DNA of 64,000 bases, from NCBI RefSeq assembly GCF_001886695.1, contig NZ_CP018097.1, forward strand, positions 310,001 through 374,000, written 5' to 3'. The notes under the pieces were generated by a model. That model made no database searches, had not been told where the DNA came from, and saw only the letters and a list, made by a program, of their open reading frames with translations. This document shows, in pieces, positions 2,285 to 8,107 of this stretch (its first letter is position 1; each line of letters starts with the position of its first letter). Source of the DNA: Aurantiacibacter gangjinensis (GTDB lineage: Bacteria > Pseudomonadota > Alphaproteobacteria > Sphingomonadales > Sphingomonadaceae). Both the position numbers and the translations under genes were made by a program.

Positions 2285-2318
2285 CCGACTGCCCTGAGCT
2301 TGTCGAAGGGCTGCCTTT
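2285..2318. repeat. Left copy of 34-bp inverted repeat (REP-like, family A)
   Basis: This segment is the exact reverse complement of 2608-2641. Its core CCCTGAGCTTGTCGAAGGG is itself an imperfect palindrome able to form a short hairpin. The two copies bracket the GIY-YIG coding segment, 16 bp before its start codon. This core resembles dispersed REP-type repeats I have seen in many proteobacterial genomes (recollection, not a search). Confidence 0.85.
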
Positions 2319-2334
2319 TTCTTAGTCCAAGAAG

Positions 2335-3036
2335 GTGCCTTACTGGACCTACATCCTCCACTGCAATACAGGTGTTCTTTACACGGGCCATACGGATAAT
2401 CTTGAGCGTCGGATCGCGCAGCATGAGCGCGGAGAATTGCCCGGTTTCACGAAGAACTATCTGCCTGTGAAGCTCGTGTGGTCGCAAGAATTTGTTACGC
2501 GAGAGGAAGCGAAAACTGCCGAAAAACAGATCAAGGGTTGGTCACGTCGGGAAAAGCTGGCTTTGATCCGGGGTGACTGGGATGCGGTCTCGCGCTTTTC
2601 CAGAAGCAAAGGCAGCCCTTCGACAAGCTCAGGGCAGTCGGATTTCTTATCTGTCAGCGCTATGGTGATAGACCAAATCCACCATCACGCTACCCGCGCC
2701 CACCCCCACGAATGCTGCGGCGTCCTCACCGGCACCGCCAACCACATCACCACCGCCATCCCGGCGCGAAACGTCCACCCGCAGCCAAGCACCCATTTCG
2801 AGATAGACCCGCAAACGCTCATCGACGCGCATCGCGCCGCACGCGGTGGCGGCCCGCAAGTATTGGGCTACTACCACTCGCACCCCGCAGGCGAGCCGCG
2901 CCCTTCGGCCACAGACCAGGCGATGGCGGCAGGCGACGGCGCGATCTGGGCGATTGTGGCGGGCGGTGCGATTGGCTGGTGGTGCGATGCGCCGGGCGGT
3001 TTCGTGGCGCTTTCCTACCCTCGCACGCTCGCGTAA
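2335..3036 (+). CDS. GIY-YIG nuclease fused in frame to M67/JAMM metallopeptidase
   Basis: One uninterrupted 233-codon frame encodes two modules. Residues 1-90 are a UPF0213-type GIY-YIG domain: TYIL...LYTGHT core, the ERRIAQHERG helix arginines and the AEKQIKGW glutamate. Residues 91-108 are a linker translated through the right-hand 34-bp repeat. Residues 110-233 are an M67 (Mov34/MPN/PAD-1) domain with the full JAMM zinc signature: Glu in HPHECCGVLTG, then HSHP, seven residues, and SATD. The frame begins with GTG after a weak AAGAAG. The ATG at 2662 would give the usual 124-residue stand-alone M67 protein but has no visible Shine-Dalgarno. I read this as an ancestral M67 gene into which a repeat-bounded nuclease cassette was inserted. 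Whether fused or separate proteins are made is not decided by sequence. JAMM substrate unknown. Confidence 0.8.
   Translation: MPYWTYILHCNTGVLYTGHTDNLERRIAQHERGELPGFTKNYLPVKLVWSQEFVTREEAKTAEKQIKGWSRREKLALIRGDWDAVSRFSRSKGSPSTSSGQSDFLSVSAMVIDQIHHHATRAHPHECCGVLTGTANHITTAIPARNVHPQPSTHFEIDPQTLIDAHRAARGGGPQVLGYYHSHPAGEPRPSATDQAMAAGDGAIWAIVAGGAIGWWCDAPGGFVALSYPRTLA
2608..2641. repeat. Right copy of 34-bp inverted repeat (REP-like, family A)
   Basis: Perfect 34/34 inverted match to 2285-2318. It is inside the open frame and encodes the linker between the nuclease and the JAMM domain (peptide KGSPSTSSGQSD). Identity stops abruptly on both sides, as expected of a discrete element rather than chance similarity. 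Confidence 0.85.
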
Positions 3037-3174
3037 GGGCCGCTGCATGTCTCATGCCTGTTACACCTTGCAGCGCCGTTTTTCATGCCTTCGCTGGCAA
3101 GGAACGGTTTTTGCGTTAGGACAGTGCTCCATGTGCTCCAGGTTAGCCCTCAATTCGAAAGCCGCTTCCGCCCG

Positions 3175-3831
3175 ATGACCACCAATTCCCTCGATCTTGC
3201 CGCCCTGCTCTGCTCGCGCCTCTGCCATGACATGCTCAGCCCCGTGGGCGCGCTCAATAACGGGCTGGAGCTGATGGCGGACGAGAAGGATCCGGTCATG
3301 CGCCAGCGCTGCATGGAGCTGCTGGAGCAAAGCGCGCGCACATCGGCCAACAAGCTCAAATTCTTCCGCCTCGCTTACGGCGCTGCCGGCGGCTTCGGCG
3401 AAGCGGTGCCGGTGGAAGAAGCGCATGAGCTGCTGCAATCGCTCACCGCTGCGGACGAGCGGCTGACGCTGGAATGGGCGGTGGGCGAGCAGAGCCTCTC
3501 CAAGCCCGCCATCAAGGTGCTGCTGAACCTTGCCGCCATGGGCCTCGACAGCCTGGTGCGCGGCGGCACGCTGGCCGTCGGGGCCGAACGCAGCGAGGGC
3601 AAGACGGAGATCGCCATTCGCGCCGCCGGGCCGAAGGTCGCCTTCGATGCTACGGTAGGCAAGGCGCTGGGCGGCCAGCTGGCGGAAAGCGAGCTTTCGG
3701 GTCGCACAGCCCCTGCCCACATGATCCGTCTGATCGTGGAGCGCGACAATGGCGAGGTCATGTATCACCATGGCGAGGATGCGCTGGTGCTGGGCGCGGT
3801 GCTGCCCGACATGGAAGGCATGATCGGATGA
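3175..3831 (+). CDS. chpT: Histidine phosphotransferase ChpT
   Basis: Relays phosphate from the hybrid kinase CckA to CtrA and CpdR in the alphaproteobacterial cell-cycle circuit. The 218-residue product begins MTTNSLDLAALLCSRLCHDM. The motif LCSRLCHDMLSPVGALNNGLELM is the DHp-like helix, and its His is the phospho-acceptor. A degenerate HATPase-like C-terminal domain follows. The ATG at 3175 is chosen because the longer frame from 3085 adds 30 residues outside the family. The stop overlaps the next start (ATGA), so it is translationally coupled to the amidase gene. Length matches ChpT proteins of related genomes as I know them. Confidence 0.88.
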   Translation: MTTNSLDLAALLCSRLCHDMLSPVGALNNGLELMADEKDPVMRQRCMELLEQSARTSANKLKFFRLAYGAAGGFGEAVPVEEAHELLQSLTAADERLTLEWAVGEQSLSKPAIKVLLNLAAMGLDSLVRGGTLAVGAERSEGKTEIAIRAAGPKVAFDATVGKALGGQLAESELSGRTAPAHMIRLIVERDNGEVMYHHGEDALVLGAVLPDMEGMIG

Positions 3832-4580
3832 GCCGCTCCGATTTCGGCGATGTCGGCCGGCATATTGCAAGCAGCGAGGACGAGCTGGTTCACCGCGAGG
3901 TCGTCTCGCCCAATTTCGACGAGCGCGCCCTGCCCATCTCCATGGTGGTGATCCACTACACCGAGATGGAGGACAAGGGCTTTGCTATCGAGCGGCTGTG
4001 CGACCCTGAAGCCAAGGTTTCCGCGCATTACGTGATCGGCAAGATGGGCGAAGTCGTGCGGCTGGTGCCGGAGGACAAGCGCGCCTGGCATGCGGGTGTC
4101 TCCTACTGGCGCGGGCACAAGGATGTGAATTCCGCCAGTATCGGTATCGAGCTCGATCATCCCGGCCACAAATACGGTTATGGCCCCTTCCCCGATGCGC
4201 AATTCGAAGCGCTGGTGCCGCTGGTGGCGCGCATGGTGAAAGCCCACGATATTCCGCGCGCCAATGTGGTGGGCCATTCCGACGTCGCGCCGGGCCGCAA
4301 GATCGATCCGGGCGAGCTGTTCCCATGGGATCGGCTCGCCGAATACGGTCTGTGCCTGCCGCGGCCCGAGAAACTGGAACGCGGCGACGTCTTCGACAAT
4401 GATGCCAGCTTCTACCTCGCGCTGGAACGCTTCGGCTATGACATCACCGACGGGTTCAAGGCGGTCGAGGCCTTCCAGCGCCGTTGGCGACCCGGCAAGA
4501 TCGACGGCCAGATCGATGGCGAGGTGCGCGCAATCCTCTTCCAGCTGCTGCTTGATCGCGACCGGGGACTCGCTAGATAG
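3828..4580 (+). CDS. N-acetylmuramoyl-L-alanine amidase (AmpD-like, amidase_2)
   Basis: Predicted zinc amidase cleaving the MurNAc-L-alanine bond of cell-wall (anhydro)muropeptides. The 250-residue product has an N-terminal amidase_2 fold (about residues 30-180). Metal and catalytic positions are visible: the His in MVVIHYTEM, the His in WHAGVSYW, and GHSDVAPGRKIDPG carrying the third zinc His plus Lys and Asp. The last 60 residues (AVEAFQRRWRP region) resemble a peptidoglycan-binding helical domain. No signal peptide is visible, so it is probably cytoplasmic and acts in recycling like AmpD. It starts inside the chpT stop codon (ATGA overlap). Confidence 0.88.
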   Translation: MSRSDFGDVGRHIASSEDELVHREVVSPNFDERALPISMVVIHYTEMEDKGFAIERLCDPEAKVSAHYVIGKMGEVVRLVPEDKRAWHAGVSYWRGHKDVNSASIGIELDHPGHKYGYGPFPDAQFEALVPLVARMVKAHDIPRANVVGHSDVAPGRKIDPGELFPWDRLAEYGLCLPRPEKLERGDVFDNDASFYLALERFGYDITDGFKAVEAFQRRWRPGKIDGQIDGEVRAILFQLLLDRDRGLAR

Positions 4581-4586
4581 GCAGCC

Positions 4587-4985
4587 GTGCCGGGGAGCCG
4601 GGCAGCCGCGTGCCTTTGGTGCGAGGAAAGTCCGGGCTCCACGAGACGAGGGTGGCGGGTAACGCCCGCCGTGGGAAACCACAGGGAAAGTGCCACAGAG
4701 AGAAGACCGCCGATGATCCTTTCAGGATACAGGCAAGGGTGAAAGGGTGCGGCAAGAGCGCACCGGGGTTCTGGCAACAGCGCCCGTCATGGCAAACCCC
4801 ACCCGGAGCAAGACCGCATAGGGGTCTCGCGCCATTAGCTGGCAGGAGCGTTTCGCTCCGAGAGACTCGGGTTGGTTGCTGGAGCGCGTGGAGCAATCCA
4901 CCGCCTAGATGAATGGCTGCCCCCGCAGCGCTGGTCGAGAGATACCGGTTGCGGGACAGAACCCGGCTTACAGGCTCCCCGGCAC
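4587..4985 (+). ncRNA. rnpB: RNase P RNA (class A)
   Basis: Catalytic RNA that removes 5' leaders from tRNA precursors. Terminal pairing is visible: GTGCCGGGGAGCC at 4587 is exactly complementary to the 3' end at 4973-4985. Conserved elements include GAGGAAAGTCCGGGCTCC near 4621, the AGAG-ACCGCC-like segment near 4700, and ACAGAACCCGGCTTACAG near 4957. Boundaries come from the terminal helix and could be off by a few bases. It follows the amidase gene directly and ends 3 bp before the convergent phosphoesterase stop. Confidence 0.95.
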
Positions 4986-4988
4986 GTT

Positions 4989-5789
4989 TCAGCCTTTCTC
5001 GACGCAGATGGCGCCGTCCGCGCCCTGCACCGCTGCGATATAGCGCCTTTGCGTGCCTTCCAGCACGATCGCGGTCAGCCTGCCGGTCTCGTAGGCACCT
5101 GTGTCCAGCCCGATGCGATTGCCCATGTCTTCGGGCTTCTCGCTAATGGTATGGCCGTGCACCACCACGAAATCTTCGTGAATGTCGCCATGGCTGAGGA
5201 AAGGCTCGCGAATCCAGCGAAGGCGGCTGATATCCTGCTCTGCCAGCGGGACGCCGGGCTCGATCCCGGCATGGACGAAAACGTAATCGCCGATGCGGAT
5301 GCTGTCTTCAAACCCCTGCATGAAGGCGACGTCCTCCTCCGGCACCGCCTCGCGCATCATTTCCTGCACTTCCTCGATGGAACTGCGCGTGTAGCGACTG
5401 CGATCCAGACCGTAGCTCATCAGCGTTTCGCGCCCGCCATAGCGCAGGAAATGGCGCAGCGTGTCGAGGCTCTCAAAGCTGCGGAGGAACATTTCCTCGT
5501 GATTGCCGGCAAGAATGCGGACATTGCGCGTGTGTTGCCACTCGCGCGCCATGGCGATCACCCGGCGGCTGTCGGGACCGCGGTCGACGAGGTCGCCCAG
5601 CAGGATGACGGTCGCCTCTGCCTCGGCCGTCTCGCGGTTGTCCGCCTCGATAGCCGCCATTATCGCCGCGAACAGGTCGTCCCGGCCATGGATGTCGCCC
5701 ATGGCATAGACACGCTCGCCATCGGGGATGGCAGCATCGAGGGAGGGGCGTTCTTCGCTCGCCCGGCGTGATCTGAAGAACGAAAACAT
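4989..5789 (-). CDS. Metallophosphoesterase, serine/threonine phosphatase-like
   Basis: Calcineurin-like phosphoesterase of 266 residues resembling bacterial PrpA/ApaH-type protein phosphatases. The ordered metal motifs are all present: GDIHGRDD, GDLVDRGPDS, GNHEEMF, then His in VFVHAGIEPG and VVHGHTI. The substrate cannot be told from sequence. It may be a phosphoprotein or a dinucleoside polyphosphate. Start: ATG at 5787-5789 (MFSFFRSRR). Upstream codons in the frame belong to the intergenic region. It is convergent with rnpB and divergent from the porin gene, with 251 bp between the two starts. Confidence 0.88.
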   Translation of the reverse strand: MFSFFRSRRASEERPSLDAAIPDGERVYAMGDIHGRDDLFAAIMAAIEADNRETAEAEATVILLGDLVDRGPDSRRVIAMAREWQHTRNVRILAGNHEEMFLRSFESLDTLRHFLRYGGRETLMSYGLDRSRYTRSSIEEVQEMMREAVPEEDVAFMQGFEDSIRIGDYVFVHAGIEPGVPLAEQDISRLRWIREPFLSHGDIHEDFVVVHGHTISEKPEDMGNRIGLDTGAYETGRLTAIVLEGTQRRYIAAVQGADGAICVEKG

Positions 5790-6040
5790 GGTGTGGCCTG
5801 TGCGCTCCACATAGGGCTTGTGCGCAAACACGCAATTGCACAATGGGCGGCGACTGGTGCGCAAACCACACAGATTGTCTCGCCATACGGAACAATGCGC
5901 AATTCTTCTTGTGCAGTGCAGCATGATCCGGCATGATTGTTGCTGCATTCGCGAAGATCGGGCACGAAACGATGCCCGGCGCGCGATCCGCGCAGGTGGG
6001 ACGAAGCATTGTTCACCACAAGCAATTGAGGAAATTGCCC

Positions 6041-6814
6041 ATGCTTACGTCCGTCCGCAGCCTTGCCGCTGCTTCAGTTTTCGCCCTCTCCGCATTCGCT
6101 GCCCCTTCCGCCATGGCGCAAGTGGTTAATCCCGCCGACGAGGTGGACGATGATGGCGGTATCGGTGTCGAGCTGTCCGCCAATGTCGCCATCGTCAGCG
6201 AATATCGCTTTCGCGGGGTAGACCTTTCGGGCGGCGACATCGCCATACAGGGCGGCATCGACCTTGGCCTGCCCGCCGGATTCTACCTTGGCACATGGGC
6301 ATCCTCCATCGACGAGGATACGGTCGGTTACGGCCACACCGAACTCGACATCTATGGCGGCTGGGCCGGTGAATTCGGCAATGTCTCCACCGATGTCGGC
6401 GTCATCGTCTATATCTACCCCAATGCAGGGGCGGGCGATTTCGACTATGTCGAATTCTACGGCTCGCTCGGCTACGCGCTCGGCCCGGCAGAAGTCACCG
6501 TCGGCATCGCTTATGCGCCGGACCAGGCCTCGCTTGGCGATACGGACAATTTCTACATCTATTCCGATGTCGGCGTCGGCATTCCCGGCACGCCTGTGAC
6601 AGTGACCGGCCATCTGGGATACACGGACGGCTTCCTGACATTTACCGACGACAGCGAAGCGCTCGACTATTCCATCGGCCTCGAAGCCGGTTTGCCGGGC
6701 ACGCCGGTATCGCTGGGCGTCGCGTTGGTCGGGGTAGAGGGCGATGCGCTGATCGACCCGAACGGGACCTTCACCGATGATGGCGTGGTGCTGACGCTGG
6801 GCGCCAGTTTCTAA
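6041..6814 (+). CDS. TorF-family putative outer-membrane porin
   Basis: Outer-membrane beta-barrel protein of 257 residues of the TorF family (conserved in Sphingomonadales). The Sec signal peptide is MLTSVRSLAAASVFALSAFA... ending AMA before QVVNPADE. The mature part alternates aromatic and acidic strands (YRFRGVDLSGG, YLGTWAS, LDIYGGW, FYIYSDVGVGIP) and ends in Phe, as expected of a barrel. I chose the ATG at 6041, preceded by GAGG, because it gives a proper signal peptide. The longer frame from 5933 would bury it. A rho-independent terminator follows directly. The transported solute is unknown. Confidence 0.85.
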   Translation: MLTSVRSLAAASVFALSAFAAPSAMAQVVNPADEVDDDGGIGVELSANVAIVSEYRFRGVDLSGGDIAIQGGIDLGLPAGFYLGTWASSIDEDTVGYGHTELDIYGGWAGEFGNVSTDVGVIVYIYPNAGAGDFDYVEFYGSLGYALGPAEVTVGIAYAPDQASLGDTDNFYIYSDVGVGIPGTPVTVTGHLGYTDGFLTFTDDSEALDYSIGLEAGLPGTPVSLGVALVGVEGDALIDPNGTFTDDGVVLTLGASF

Positions 6815-6834
6815 CGCCTTCCATATCATGAAAA

Positions 6835-6871
6835 GGGGCGCGGTCCGGCAACGGACCTGCGCCCTTTTTCT
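6835..6871 (+). terminator. Rho-independent terminator after the porin gene
   Basis: A strong hairpin (GGGCGCGGTCCG paired with CGGACCTGCGCCC, one bulge, loop GCAA) is followed by TTTTTC. It lies 20 bp after the porin stop. Confidence 0.85.
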
Positions 6872-6931
6872 TTGCGGCGATGCGCTCTCGCGCCTAGCTG
6901 CGAGCGAAACGATGAGAGAAGGACACGAGCC

Positions 6932-7369
6932 ATGGCCCAATACCTCCACACCATGATCCGCGTTGCCGATCCGGATGCCGCCATCGACTTCTTCAGGCTG
7001 ATCGGCCTGGAGGAAGTGCGCCGCAAGGAAAGCGAGAAGGGCCGCTTCACGCTCATCTTCATGGCCGCGCCGGGGCAGGAGGACGTCGCCGAACTGGAAT
7101 TGACCTATAACTGGCCGCCCGAAACCGGCAGCGCGCCCGAAACCTATGACGGCGGACGCAATTTCGGCCATCTCGCTTACCGCGTCGACGACATTTACGA
7201 AACGTGCCAGCGCCTGATGGATGCCGGCGTCACCATCAACCGTCCCCCGCGCGACGGCCACATGGCCTTCATCCGCTCGCCAGATGGCATTTCGGTCGAG
7301 TTGCTGCAGGATGGCCATCTCGACCCGCAGGAGCCTTGGGCCAGCATGGAAAATACCGGCAGCTGGTGA
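6932..7369 (+). CDS. gloA: Lactoylglutathione lyase (glyoxalase I)-like, VOC family
   Basis: Predicted to convert the methylglyoxal-glutathione hemithioacetal to S-lactoylglutathione in the cytoplasm. The 145-residue product is a single vicinal-oxygen-chelate unit: HTMIRVADPDAAIDFF at the start (first metal His), LELTYNW, NFGHLAYRVDDIYE (second His), and SPDGISVELLQ (metal Glu). Start is the ATG at 6932 preceded by GAGAGAAGGA. It is flanked by the porin terminator upstream and by repeat element B1 downstream. Another VOC activity cannot be excluded. Confidence 0.85.
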   Translation: MAQYLHTMIRVADPDAAIDFFRLIGLEEVRRKESEKGRFTLIFMAAPGQEDVAELELTYNWPPETGSAPETYDGGRNFGHLAYRVDDIYETCQRLMDAGVTINRPPRDGHMAFIRSPDGISVELLQDGHLDPQEPWASMENTGSW

Positions 7370-7410
7370 TCGGTCGTGCTTCGCTTGCACTTACCGGATT
7401 CTCCCGCAAT

Positions 7411-7521
7411 CCGTCATCGGGAGGAAGCGAAGCGACCGCGGCGATCCATGGTGCGACAATCCAACGCGGCGGAGCAGGCTACGGTAGCGCCATGGATCGC
7501 CACGCTTCGCTCGCGATGACG
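7411..7521. repeat. REPIN-like element B1 (two inverted arms)
   Basis: The left arm (7412-7460) runs CGTCATCGGGAG... to GGCGATCCATGG and the right arm (7482-7521) is its inverted partner, CCATGGATCGCC... ending GCGATGACG. The arms are separated by a spacer containing GCGGAGCAGGCTACGGTAGC. It lies 43 bp before the second GIY-YIG gene. The arm sequence matches elements B2 and B3. Confidence 0.85.
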
Positions 7522-7564
7522 ATTTCGCTTTGCATTGCCGATAGATACCCGACACCGTTCCGAG

Positions 7565-7867
7565 ATGAACCGCGACATATTCCAGCCAGCCGCCTACATC
7601 ATGGCCAGCCAGAAAGGCGGCACGCTCTATGTCGGTGTCACATCGGATCCGGTAAAACGCATTCATCAGCATCGCGAAGGCCTCGTGGACGGCTTCACCA
7701 AACGCTACCGCTGCAAACGCCTCGTCTGGATCGAGTTTCACGAAAACATGGACAGCGCCATCATTCGCGAGAAGCAGCTGAAAGCTGGCTCACGGAAGAC
7801 CAAGATAGCACTGATCGAGGCTGATAATGCTGACTGGCGCGACCTGTGGGACGCAATAATTAAATAG
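7565..7867 (+). CDS. GIY-YIG nuclease family protein (UPF0213-type)
   Basis: Single-domain nuclease-like protein of 100 residues. Family signatures are AAYIMASQKGGTLYVGVT (the GIY and YIG equivalents), VKRIHQHREG (catalytic-face Arg and His), GFTKRYRCKRLVWIE, and REKQLKAGSR with the metal-binding Glu. It is related to the nuclease half of the protein at 2335, but clearly not a recent copy. Start: ATG 7565 (MNRDIFQPAAYIM). The GIY core begins right after it, and an earlier in-frame start at 7535 adds 10 residues. No good Shine-Dalgarno is visible. The gene fits tightly between repeat elements B1 and B2 (3 bp from stop to B2). DNA or RNA substrate unknown. Confidence 0.85.
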   Translation: MNRDIFQPAAYIMASQKGGTLYVGVTSDPVKRIHQHREGLVDGFTKRYRCKRLVWIEFHENMDSAIIREKQLKAGSRKTKIALIEADNADWRDLWDAIIK

Positions 7868-7870
7868 ATT

Positions 7871-7981
7871 CGTCATCGCGAGGGAGCGTAGCGACTGCGG
7901 CGATCCATGGTGCGACTTTTGCAAGCCGGCGCCTTCGGACATGGCAGTCCCATGGATCGCCGCGCTTCGCTCGCGATGACG
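7871..7981. repeat. REPIN-like element B2
   Basis: Same arms as B1: CGTCATCGCGAG... CGATCCATGG at 7871-7910 and CCATGGATCGCCGCGC... GATGACG at 7950-7981. The spacer (TTTTGCAAGCCGGCGCC...) differs from B1 and B3. It begins 3 bp after the GIY-YIG stop codon. Confidence 0.85.
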
Positions 7982-7998
7982 GCGTCAAAAACCAAATC

Positions 7999-8107
7999 GG
8001 TCATCGCGAGGGAGCGTAGCGACCGCGGCGATCCATGGTGCGACAATTCATGGCGGAGCAGCGGGCTACGGTAGCGCCGTGGATCGCCGCGTTTCGCTCA
8101 CCTCGAC
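7999..8107. repeat. REPIN-like element B3, right arm partly eroded
   Basis: The left arm is nearly identical to B2 (GGTCATCGCGAGGGAGCG...). The spacer (GCGGAGCAGCGGGCTACGGTAGCGCC) is nearly that of B1. The right arm ends GTTTCGCTCACCTCG instead of GCTTCGCTCGCGATGACG. It ends about 60 bp before der and so forms part of its upstream region. Confidence 0.8.

What the first reader, a model, noticed from the sequence alone, without database searches (positions are those of the whole stretch)
2285..8107. Hypothesis: GIY-YIG proteins as mobilisers or keepers of REP-type palindromes
REP/REPIN elements are known to be associated with RAYT (IS200-like) transposases. Here two related but diverged UPF0213-type GIY-YIG nucleases each sit inside a different palindromic repeat family within 6 kb. 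Each nuclease may recognise or nick its own repeat, giving a REP-dispersal system based on a different enzyme. I do not know of a described system of this kind, but cannot search.
Basis: inference. Interest (0 to 1): 0.8.

Follow-up and report, generated by a model that had tools for sequence, protein, structure and literature searches.

The report
GIY-YIG nuclease cassettes bordered by REPs
Small GIY-YIG DNA-cutting enzymes in many bacteria are encoded between two inverted copies of a scattered hairpin repeat, each enzyme group tending to its own repeat type, which suggests that they are the missing partner enzyme of a large class of genomic repeats with no known mover.

Summary
Observation confirmed. 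NUC1 (2335-2607) lies between perfect 34-bp inverted arms (family A), NUC2 (7565-7867) among CGTC-headed family-B palindromes. All 6 small GIY-YIG genes found in this genome, but not uvrC, are so flanked, by five repeat types. In 60 genomes of the order, 65 of 101 small GIY-YIG genes have significant inverted flanks (shuffles 0.16%; uvrC 0 of 14). Repeat type follows nuclease phylogeny (family A: one clade; label-free Mantel r 0.39, 0 of 999 permutations). A-repeat number follows A-nuclease presence (11 of 12 genomes against 3 of 48) and is unrelated to RAYT-type (Y1_Tnp) genes, which this genome lacks. Related nucleases at unrelated sites share DNA that ends at or near the repeats' outer ends. 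The same architecture occurs in several phyla. Most flanking repeats fit the known 'CGTC REPs', reported in 2013 to lack a dedicated transposase. Best reading: repeat-nuclease-repeat is a mobile cassette, and dispersed repeat pairs are its gene-less derivatives. That the nuclease itself cuts the hairpins and drives movement is inferred, not shown. The listings of ten library searches showed no paper describing this.

The parts
2285..2318 (-). left arm, family A repeat (core CCTGAGCTTGTCGAAGG)
2335..2607 (+). NUC1, GIY-YIG nuclease domain, A clade; frame continues through the right arm
2608..2641 (+). right arm, family A repeat, perfect inverted copy of the left arm; translated as a PSTSSGQS linker
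2662..3033 (+). Prok-JAB domain fused in frame behind NUC1 (host gene next to rluD)
7412..7521 (.). B unit 1, CGTC at both outer ends, folds as one long hairpin
7565..7867 (+). NUC2, GIY-YIG nuclease, B clade
7871..7981 (.). B unit 2, CGTC at both outer ends, folds as one long hairpin
7999..8100 (.). B unit 3, right end degenerate, just upstream of der

Best explanation
The two loci are members of a large class of small mobile cassettes, each made of a REP-type palindrome, a single-domain GIY-YIG nuclease gene and an inverted copy of the same palindrome. SHOWN by sequence: the association, clade-to-repeat matching, presence/absence between relatives, and homologous DNA ending at or near the outer ends of the repeats in cassettes at unrelated sites. 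INFERRED: each nuclease recognises its own repeat, folded as a hairpin or cruciform (conserved head, loop and tail, freely varying paired stem), and cuts at or near its outer end; the cut cassette, or a gene-less pair of repeats, is then copied or moved by host repair and replication. The dispersed repeat pairs would be non-autonomous derivatives, as REPINs are for RAYT transposases. NUC1 at rluD-JAB looks partly settled: it is kept at one site in many species and is fused to a host protein.
For: Own genome: the 6 small GIY-YIG genes found (E up to 0.001) lie between inverted palindromes of 5 types, uvrC does not. 60 genomes: 65 of 101 small GIY-YIG score 14 or more (shuffle null 0.16%); uvrC 0 of 14. 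Repeat type follows the tree and the Mantel test (also inside the CGTC clade, r 0.22, 0 of 999). A-nuclease presence predicts 5 or more A cores, 11 of 12 against 3 of 48, p 1e-8, and inside the window's family 9 of 9 against 1 of 7, with no cross-association. Boundaries: in L195/L350 and L314/L320 homology starts and stops at CGTC/GACG at both ends; L141/L166 (one genome) about ten bases outside the heads; L163/L201 (one genome) and L239/L242 at the left head, with gaps on the right; L348/L357, two sites of one Sinorhizobium replicon, 94% alike over about 570 bp. Sites without the cassette: glo-der (only G000 filled among 21 readable loci), Sinorhizobium and Sphingobium plasmids. Nuclease-JAB frame open in 8 of 9 same-orientation rluD-JAB loci; dN/dS median 0.09. 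Gene-less repeat pairs have the same outward-head orientation as the cassette: CTTG-loop CGTC type 7 of 8 close pairs, A 21 of 22 in the NUC1 orientation.
Against: No binding, cutting or transposition was observed. No clear target-site duplication was seen. Repeats without a detected cognate nuclease exist: G050 has 28 B and 5 A copies, G036 6 B, G033 15 A, G026 5 A; G058 has an A-clade nuclease but 0 matches to the A core, its arms being a variant; this genome has NUC2 but few B copies. The copy-number tests do not correct for species phylogeny. The two CGTC sub-types (loop 4 and loop 5) are mixed on the tree, 10 and 11 changes, and one of 6 B rows stands apart. 11 of 78 loci labelled as flanked have an inverted-repeat score under 13, some with a repeat on one side only (for example L154, L178, L197, L209). 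A GIY-YIG nuclease is not known to make a covalent intermediate (general knowledge), so host functions would have to do the rejoining.
Confidence: 0.62

Rival explanations
1. Free-standing homing endonuclease: the nuclease cuts a REP palindrome at another site and the cassette is copied in by homologous repair through the flanking repeats. The repeats are target and homology arms, not transposon ends.
For: GIY-YIG is a classical homing-nuclease fold (general knowledge). In three of the four plasmid alleles without cassette that I fetched, the site holds a single near-symmetric palindrome with heads at both ends, as if a REP were the insertion site or the scar: L352 (Sinorhizobium), L353 and L355 (Sphingobium).
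Against: Empty glo-der and rluD-JAB loci and the shortest ruvA-ruvB gap (L363, 12 bp) show no palindrome, nor does the fourth plasmid allele L354. It does not by itself explain dispersal of gene-less repeat pairs to sites without a repeat.
Confidence: 0.2
2. Keeper, not mover: a structure-specific nuclease, like the GIY-YIG enzyme SLX1, that removes hairpins formed by its repeat and limits their damage; repeat pairs spread by replication errors.
For: Stem positions of the repeats vary with kept pairing (pairing was part of the selection); the nuclease is under purifying selection and NUC1 is retained and fused to a host gene in several species.
Against: A keeper need not be flanked by its repeats nor move with them; the cassette boundaries and multiple sites argue for a mobile unit.
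Confidence: 0.1
3. Passenger: the repeat pair is moved by another enzyme (RAYT or other transposase) and the nuclease is cargo.
For: Four of 14 genomes with 5 or more A cores do encode Y1_Tnp proteins.
Against: No Y1_Tnp match in this genome and no association with repeat number (p 1.0); repeat type tracks nuclease clade; PMC3733652 reports no transposase gene flanked by CGTC repeats beyond fortuitous cases (passages). Other transposase families were not searched here.
Confidence: 0.06

Closest known systems
CGTC-tagged REPs (Di Nocera et al. 2013, PMC3733652; passages read)
   Same: Head CGTC/TGTC, stem 8-9, loop 4-5, tail CCA, A-T first pair, outward-head dimers: the repeats beside the CGTC-clade nucleases fit. 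Neisseria dRS3 is listed there as CGTC-1.
   Different: That paper states that these repeats lack a dedicated transposase and does not mention GIY-YIG (0 hits for 'GIY'). Family A here has no simple CGTC hairpin; family B is CGTC-headed but longer.
RAYT transposases with GTAG REPs / REPINs
   Same: Single small enzyme gene flanked by inverted REPs, with gene-less REP pairs dispersed in the genome (passages of PMC3733652, and general knowledge).
   Different: RAYTs are Y1 tyrosine transposases; here the enzyme is a GIY-YIG nuclease and the tag is CGTC or the A type, not GTAG.
Free-standing GIY-YIG homing endonucleases (I-TevI/Seg type; recalled)
   Same: Mobile gene with a GIY-YIG domain.
   Different: No intron; ends are REP palindromes; many repeat copies per genome; single domain of about 75-100 residues.
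UPF0213 proteins (PDB 1zg2, 1ywl)
   Same: The only two solved structures matched by the sequence profile (E 1.9e-6 and 2.7e-4).
   Different: Deposited as hypothetical proteins; flanks of those two genes were not examined. A YhbQ-like subclade in our set (name recalled) has no repeat flanks.
Tsy transposon (PMC10293859; passages read)
   Same: Mobile element carrying a GIY-YIG nuclease.
   Different: There the nuclease is a non-essential accessory of tyrosine recombinases, and no inverted-repeat ends were detected.

Membership tests
CGTC-tagged REP (flanking repeats of the CGTC-clade nucleases) | CGTC or TGTC head, 8-9 bp stem, 4-5 nt loop, CCA-like tail | tested here: met
   97 loop-5 and 99 loop-4 repeats selected for [CT]GTC head and stem pairing; tails CCA 73 of 97 and 69 of 99; pair 1 A-T 76 of 97 and 78 of 99. 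Head and pairing were selection criteria there; tail and loop sequence were not. Heads and hairpins are also seen without that selection.
CGTC-tagged REP (flanking repeats of the CGTC-clade nucleases) | Predominantly dimers with CGTC outside | tested here: met
   Own genome, CTTG-loop type: 7 outward-head close pairs, 1 of the opposite kind, 0 tandem; definition.
CGTC-tagged REP (family A) | CGTC head and simple 8-9 bp hairpin | tested here: not met
   One A arm alone folds poorly (z -1.4); a pair folds as one long stem (z -4.4).
RAYT/REPIN system | Y1/HUH tyrosine transposase beside the repeats | tested here: not met
   PF01797 0 matches in the genome; the window proteins are GIY-YIG.
RAYT/REPIN system | GTAG tag on the repeats | tested here: not met
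   Heads are CGTC/TGTC or CCGNTC in family A.
GIY-YIG nuclease superfamily | Pfam GIY-YIG domain with conserved core residues | tested here: met
   Y, YxG, R, H and E columns invariant or nearly so in the alignments; their catalytic roles are recalled.
Homing endonuclease | Cleaves the cassette-less allele at the insertion point | not testable with these tools
   Needs an assay.
Autonomous transposable element | Defined ends, same unit at unrelated sites | tested here: met
   both ends at the heads in L195/L350 and L314/L320, less exact in L141/L166, L163/L201 and L239/L242.
Autonomous transposable element | Target-site duplication | tested here: inconclusive
   None seen by eye at the boundaries; genus relatives too diverged for exact empty sites.
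Autonomous transposable element | Movement dependent on the encoded enzyme | not testable with these tools
   Needs an experiment.

The most novel reading that the evidence does not exclude
A previously undescribed class of mobile DNA in which a single-domain GIY-YIG nuclease serves as the dedicated enzyme of REP palindromes. It would be the missing partner of the CGTC REP superfamily (which includes Neisseria dRS3), widespread across bacterial phyla, with enzyme and hairpin co-diversifying.
Probability: 0.5. Interest if true: 0.93.

Novelty: categorically new. Interest (0 to 1): 0.85.

Why it matters
CGTC REPs were reported in 2013 to lack a dedicated transposase, and two ad hoc ideas (extinct enzyme, borrowed enzymes) were offered (PMC3733652, passages). 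A candidate cognate nuclease lying inside the repeats makes the question directly testable with one purified protein and one oligonucleotide. It would also give a use to a very common family of uncharacterised small proteins, a second enzymatic route to REP dispersal, and a natural set of nuclease-hairpin specificity pairs.

Tried and rejected
RAYT as explanation: rejected. Repeats as general intergenic furniture: rejected by uvrC, shuffle and pseudo-gene controls. NUC1 repeats as a local oddity: rejected, 74 matches in the genome. Mismatched-pair null for the inverted-repeat score: 99% at 21 for the 60 genomes and inflated for the and loci because members share repeats (95% at 21), so shuffled flanks were used as null. 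Defence role: no PADLOC hit for NUC1 or NUC2, two weak part-matches (E 2e-4 and 9e-3) for one CGTC-clade nuclease. NCBIfam: nothing. Exact target-site duplication: sought by eye, not found. Literature: ten library searches; I saw listings with starts of abstracts (one search listed none) and passages of four papers. None of this links GIY-YIG proteins to REPs; PMC9465073 only lists a RayT and a GIY-YIG gene among genes that differ between Moraxella clades. bioRxiv and most subscription papers are not in that library.

Choices that affect counts: one search reports 165 matches in 60 genomes (sum of its per-genome column); 101 small ones were analysed. Left out were uvrC-like long frames, the rluD-JAB copy of G008 (already L081), one 506-aa frame, and matches below the listing limit. 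Of the 101 repeat labels, 34 were changed by hand from flank sequence after the automatic pass, and four A2 labels were merged into A; the automatic pass alone found a matching type on both sides in 46 of 101, something one-sided or unmatched in 20, nothing in 35. Of the hand-set labels some rest on one side only. The tree test repeated with the 45 automatic two-sided labels of types A, B, T4 and T5 gave 7 changes against a shuffled mean of 20.2, least 15 of 200. The Mantel test uses no labels (65 loci with score 14 or more). In one search, 79 of 80 loci, and, 29 of 32, were scored. The A-nuclease and B-nuclease genome lists come from the rows. One more Sphingobium plasmid that appears to lack the cassette (H84) was not fetched.
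Full report
WHAT IS THERE. NUC1 (2335-2607) is flanked by a perfect 34-nt inverted repeat at 2285-2318 and 2608-2641. NUC2 (7565-7867) lies between 110-nt B units at 7412-7521 and 7871-7981, with a third at about 7999-8100. Both are GIY-YIG proteins, 42% identical. The NUC1 frame continues through the right arm, read as PSTSSGQS, into a Prok-JAB domain.

THE PATTERN IS GENOME-WIDE. PF01541 gives 7 matches in this genome: the two above, four more small proteins and uvrC. Each of the four others is also flanked by inverted palindromes: GTCATCCTGAACTTGTTTCAGGATC type (L003), GTCACCCCGGACTTGATCCGGGGTCC type (L004, L006) and GTCACCCCCGCGAAGGCGGGGGTCC type (L005). Around uvrC no 11-mer is shared between the flanks. 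The repeats are dispersed. The A core has 74 matches against 1 control; of 22 close pairs 21 have the same relative orientation as around NUC1, 15 of them 57-62 bp apart, and the short elements share end and inner sequence with the NUC1 element. The CTTG-loop CGTC type has 34 against 0, with 7 of 8 close pairs in the outward-head orientation. B is low-copy here. Y1_Tnp, the RAYT domain, has no match.

SIXTY GENOMES. From PF01541 in 60 genomes of the order I analysed 101 small proteins. The best local match of the left flank to the reverse complement of the right flank scored 14 or more in 65 of 101 against 0.16% of shuffles; uvrC genes scored 10 or less in 14 of 14. Pseudo-genes reached 14 in 9 of 421 window positions (3 at the two nuclease loci) and 3 of 412 in relatives. 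The CGTC-type flanking hairpins have CGTC outward, stem 8-9, loop 4-5 and CCA inward. After labelling (34 of 101 changed by hand, see Tried and rejected) there were 33 loop-5 CGTC, 21 loop-4 CGTC, 18 A, 6 B and 23 unflanked; of these 29, 18, 15, 3 and 0 score 14 or more. On the tree A is one clade (18 of 18, SH-aLRT 94), B is a clade of 5 plus one outlier, and unflanked needs 2 changes: the unflanked proteins are other GIY-YIG subfamilies plus one row (L203). In total 15 changes against a shuffled mean of 56.8 (0 of 200). With automatic two-sided labels only (45 rows) there are 7 changes against 20.2, least 15 of 200. The loop-4 and loop-5 types are mixed (10 and 11 changes, against shuffled means of 19.3 and 28.0). 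Without labels, arm similarity correlates with protein identity between genomes (r 0.386, 0 of 999; inside the CGTC clade r 0.221, 0 of 999), while different nucleases of one genome have unlike arms (median similarity 0.25 over 82 pairs). With 95 alignment columns many forks of the tree are unresolved.

COPY NUMBER. Five or more A cores occur in 11 of 12 genomes with an A-clade nuclease and in 3 of 48 without (p 1e-8); inside the window's family 9 of 9 and 1 of 7 (at 10 copies 9 of 9 and 0 of 7). For B (2 or more copies) 5 of 6 against 2 of 54; at 5 or more copies only 3 of 6 against 2 of 54 (p 0.005). One exception, G050, has 28 copies and no detected B nuclease. A nuclease does not predict B copies nor B nuclease A copies in the family (p 0.58 and 0.23), and Y1_Tnp does not predict A copies (p 1.0). 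These tests do not correct for species phylogeny.

MOBILITY. At rluD-JAB the NUC1 cassette is present in 10 of the 19 genus genomes in which the JAB gene was found, counting this one. In 9 it has the same orientation and in one (L080) it is reversed; 7 are empty; one (L076) keeps a single arm and an inverted piece of the nuclease start; one (L072) could not be read. At glo-der only this genome has the B cassette; 20 relatives in which glo was found beside der have no NUC2 match. At ruvA-ruvB a relative of the L003 nuclease is present in 7 of 26 loci in which ruvA was found, this genome included. Related nucleases (77-94% alike in DNA) occur at unrelated sites with homology ending at or near the repeats: L195/L350 (Novosphingobium aromaticivorans pNL2) and L314/L320 (viral contigs) at CGTC and GACG at both ends; L141/L166 in one genome with about ten further matching bases outside the heads; L163/L201 in one genome and L239/L242 clearly at the left head, less cleanly on the right. 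Two copies in one Sinorhizobium replicon share about 570 bp at 94%. Against 96%-identical flanks in S. meliloti one of these sites lacks the cassette and holds one near-symmetric palindrome; of three Sphingobium plasmids without cassette that I fetched, two hold such a palindrome and one does not. In Azospirillum a cassette sits between sufB and sufC. No target-site duplication was recognised.

BREADTH. By record title these include Planctomycetes, Marinimicrobia, Uhrbacteria, Omnitrophus, Dehalococcoidia, many Proteobacteria and a Neisseria gonorrhoeae record. Among viral contigs 24 of 29 score 14 or more; whether those contigs are truly viral was not checked.

SELECTION AND FUNCTION. NUC1 orthologues have median dN/dS 0.09 (27 of 45 pairs with finite dS; dS is near saturation). 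The nuclease-JAB frame is open in 8 of 9 same-orientation loci. Three Sinorhizobium copies show dN below 0.01 against dS 0.08-0.31. So the protein appears to be under purifying selection. Stem positions of the repeats vary with kept pairing, while head, loop and tail are nearly constant (head and pairing were part of the selection), which suggests recognition of a folded hairpin.

COMPARISON. Di Nocera et al. 2013 (PMC3733652, passages read) define GTAG and CGTC REPs; [quoted passage not shown] The repeats around the CGTC-clade nucleases meet that definition. The system works like RAYT/REPIN but is not a member: the enzyme family and the tag differ. The listings of ten library searches showed no report of this association; the library lacks bioRxiv and most subscription journals.

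VERDICT. The association is real, general and specific. Mobility of the cassette is well supported by sequence comparison. That the nuclease is the agent is the simplest reading of clade-specific pairing, purifying selection and the lack of a RAYT, but it is untested.

Noticed in passing
window 2335-3033; L064-L067, L069, L073, L077, L081: In-frame fusion of the A-clade nuclease to a Prok-JAB protein, with the repeat arm encoding the linker, open in 8 of 9 same-orientation loci. Function of the fusion unknown.
   Followed up: partly
L352, L353, L355: Alleles without the nuclease hold one near-symmetric palindrome with heads at both ends, as if made of the outer halves of the two flanking repeats.
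   Followed up: partly
L080; L076: Reversed NUC1 cassette in one species and a decayed inverted remnant with one arm in another at the same rluD-JAB site.
   Followed up: no
L148/L159 (G047:C5:159053-159852): Two GIY-YIG genes in tandem, identical over the compared protein stretch, separated by the same CGTC repeats.
   Followed up: no
L008, L013, L033, L077, L079: A arms in which the core is interrupted by an extra short stretch, hairpin-like by eye, on one side.
   Followed up: no
window 4590-4986: RNase P RNA, bacterial class A (275 bits), between the two nuclease loci.
   Followed up: yes
L349: A GIY-YIG gene inserted between sufB and sufC on an Azospirillum lipoferum plasmid.
   Followed up: no
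G050: 28 B and 5 A repeat copies but no detected B or A nuclease: possible loss of the enzyme.
   Followed up: no
L358-L387: The ruvA-ruvB gap varies from 12 to about 1400 bp, with different inserts, in this genus.
   Followed up: no
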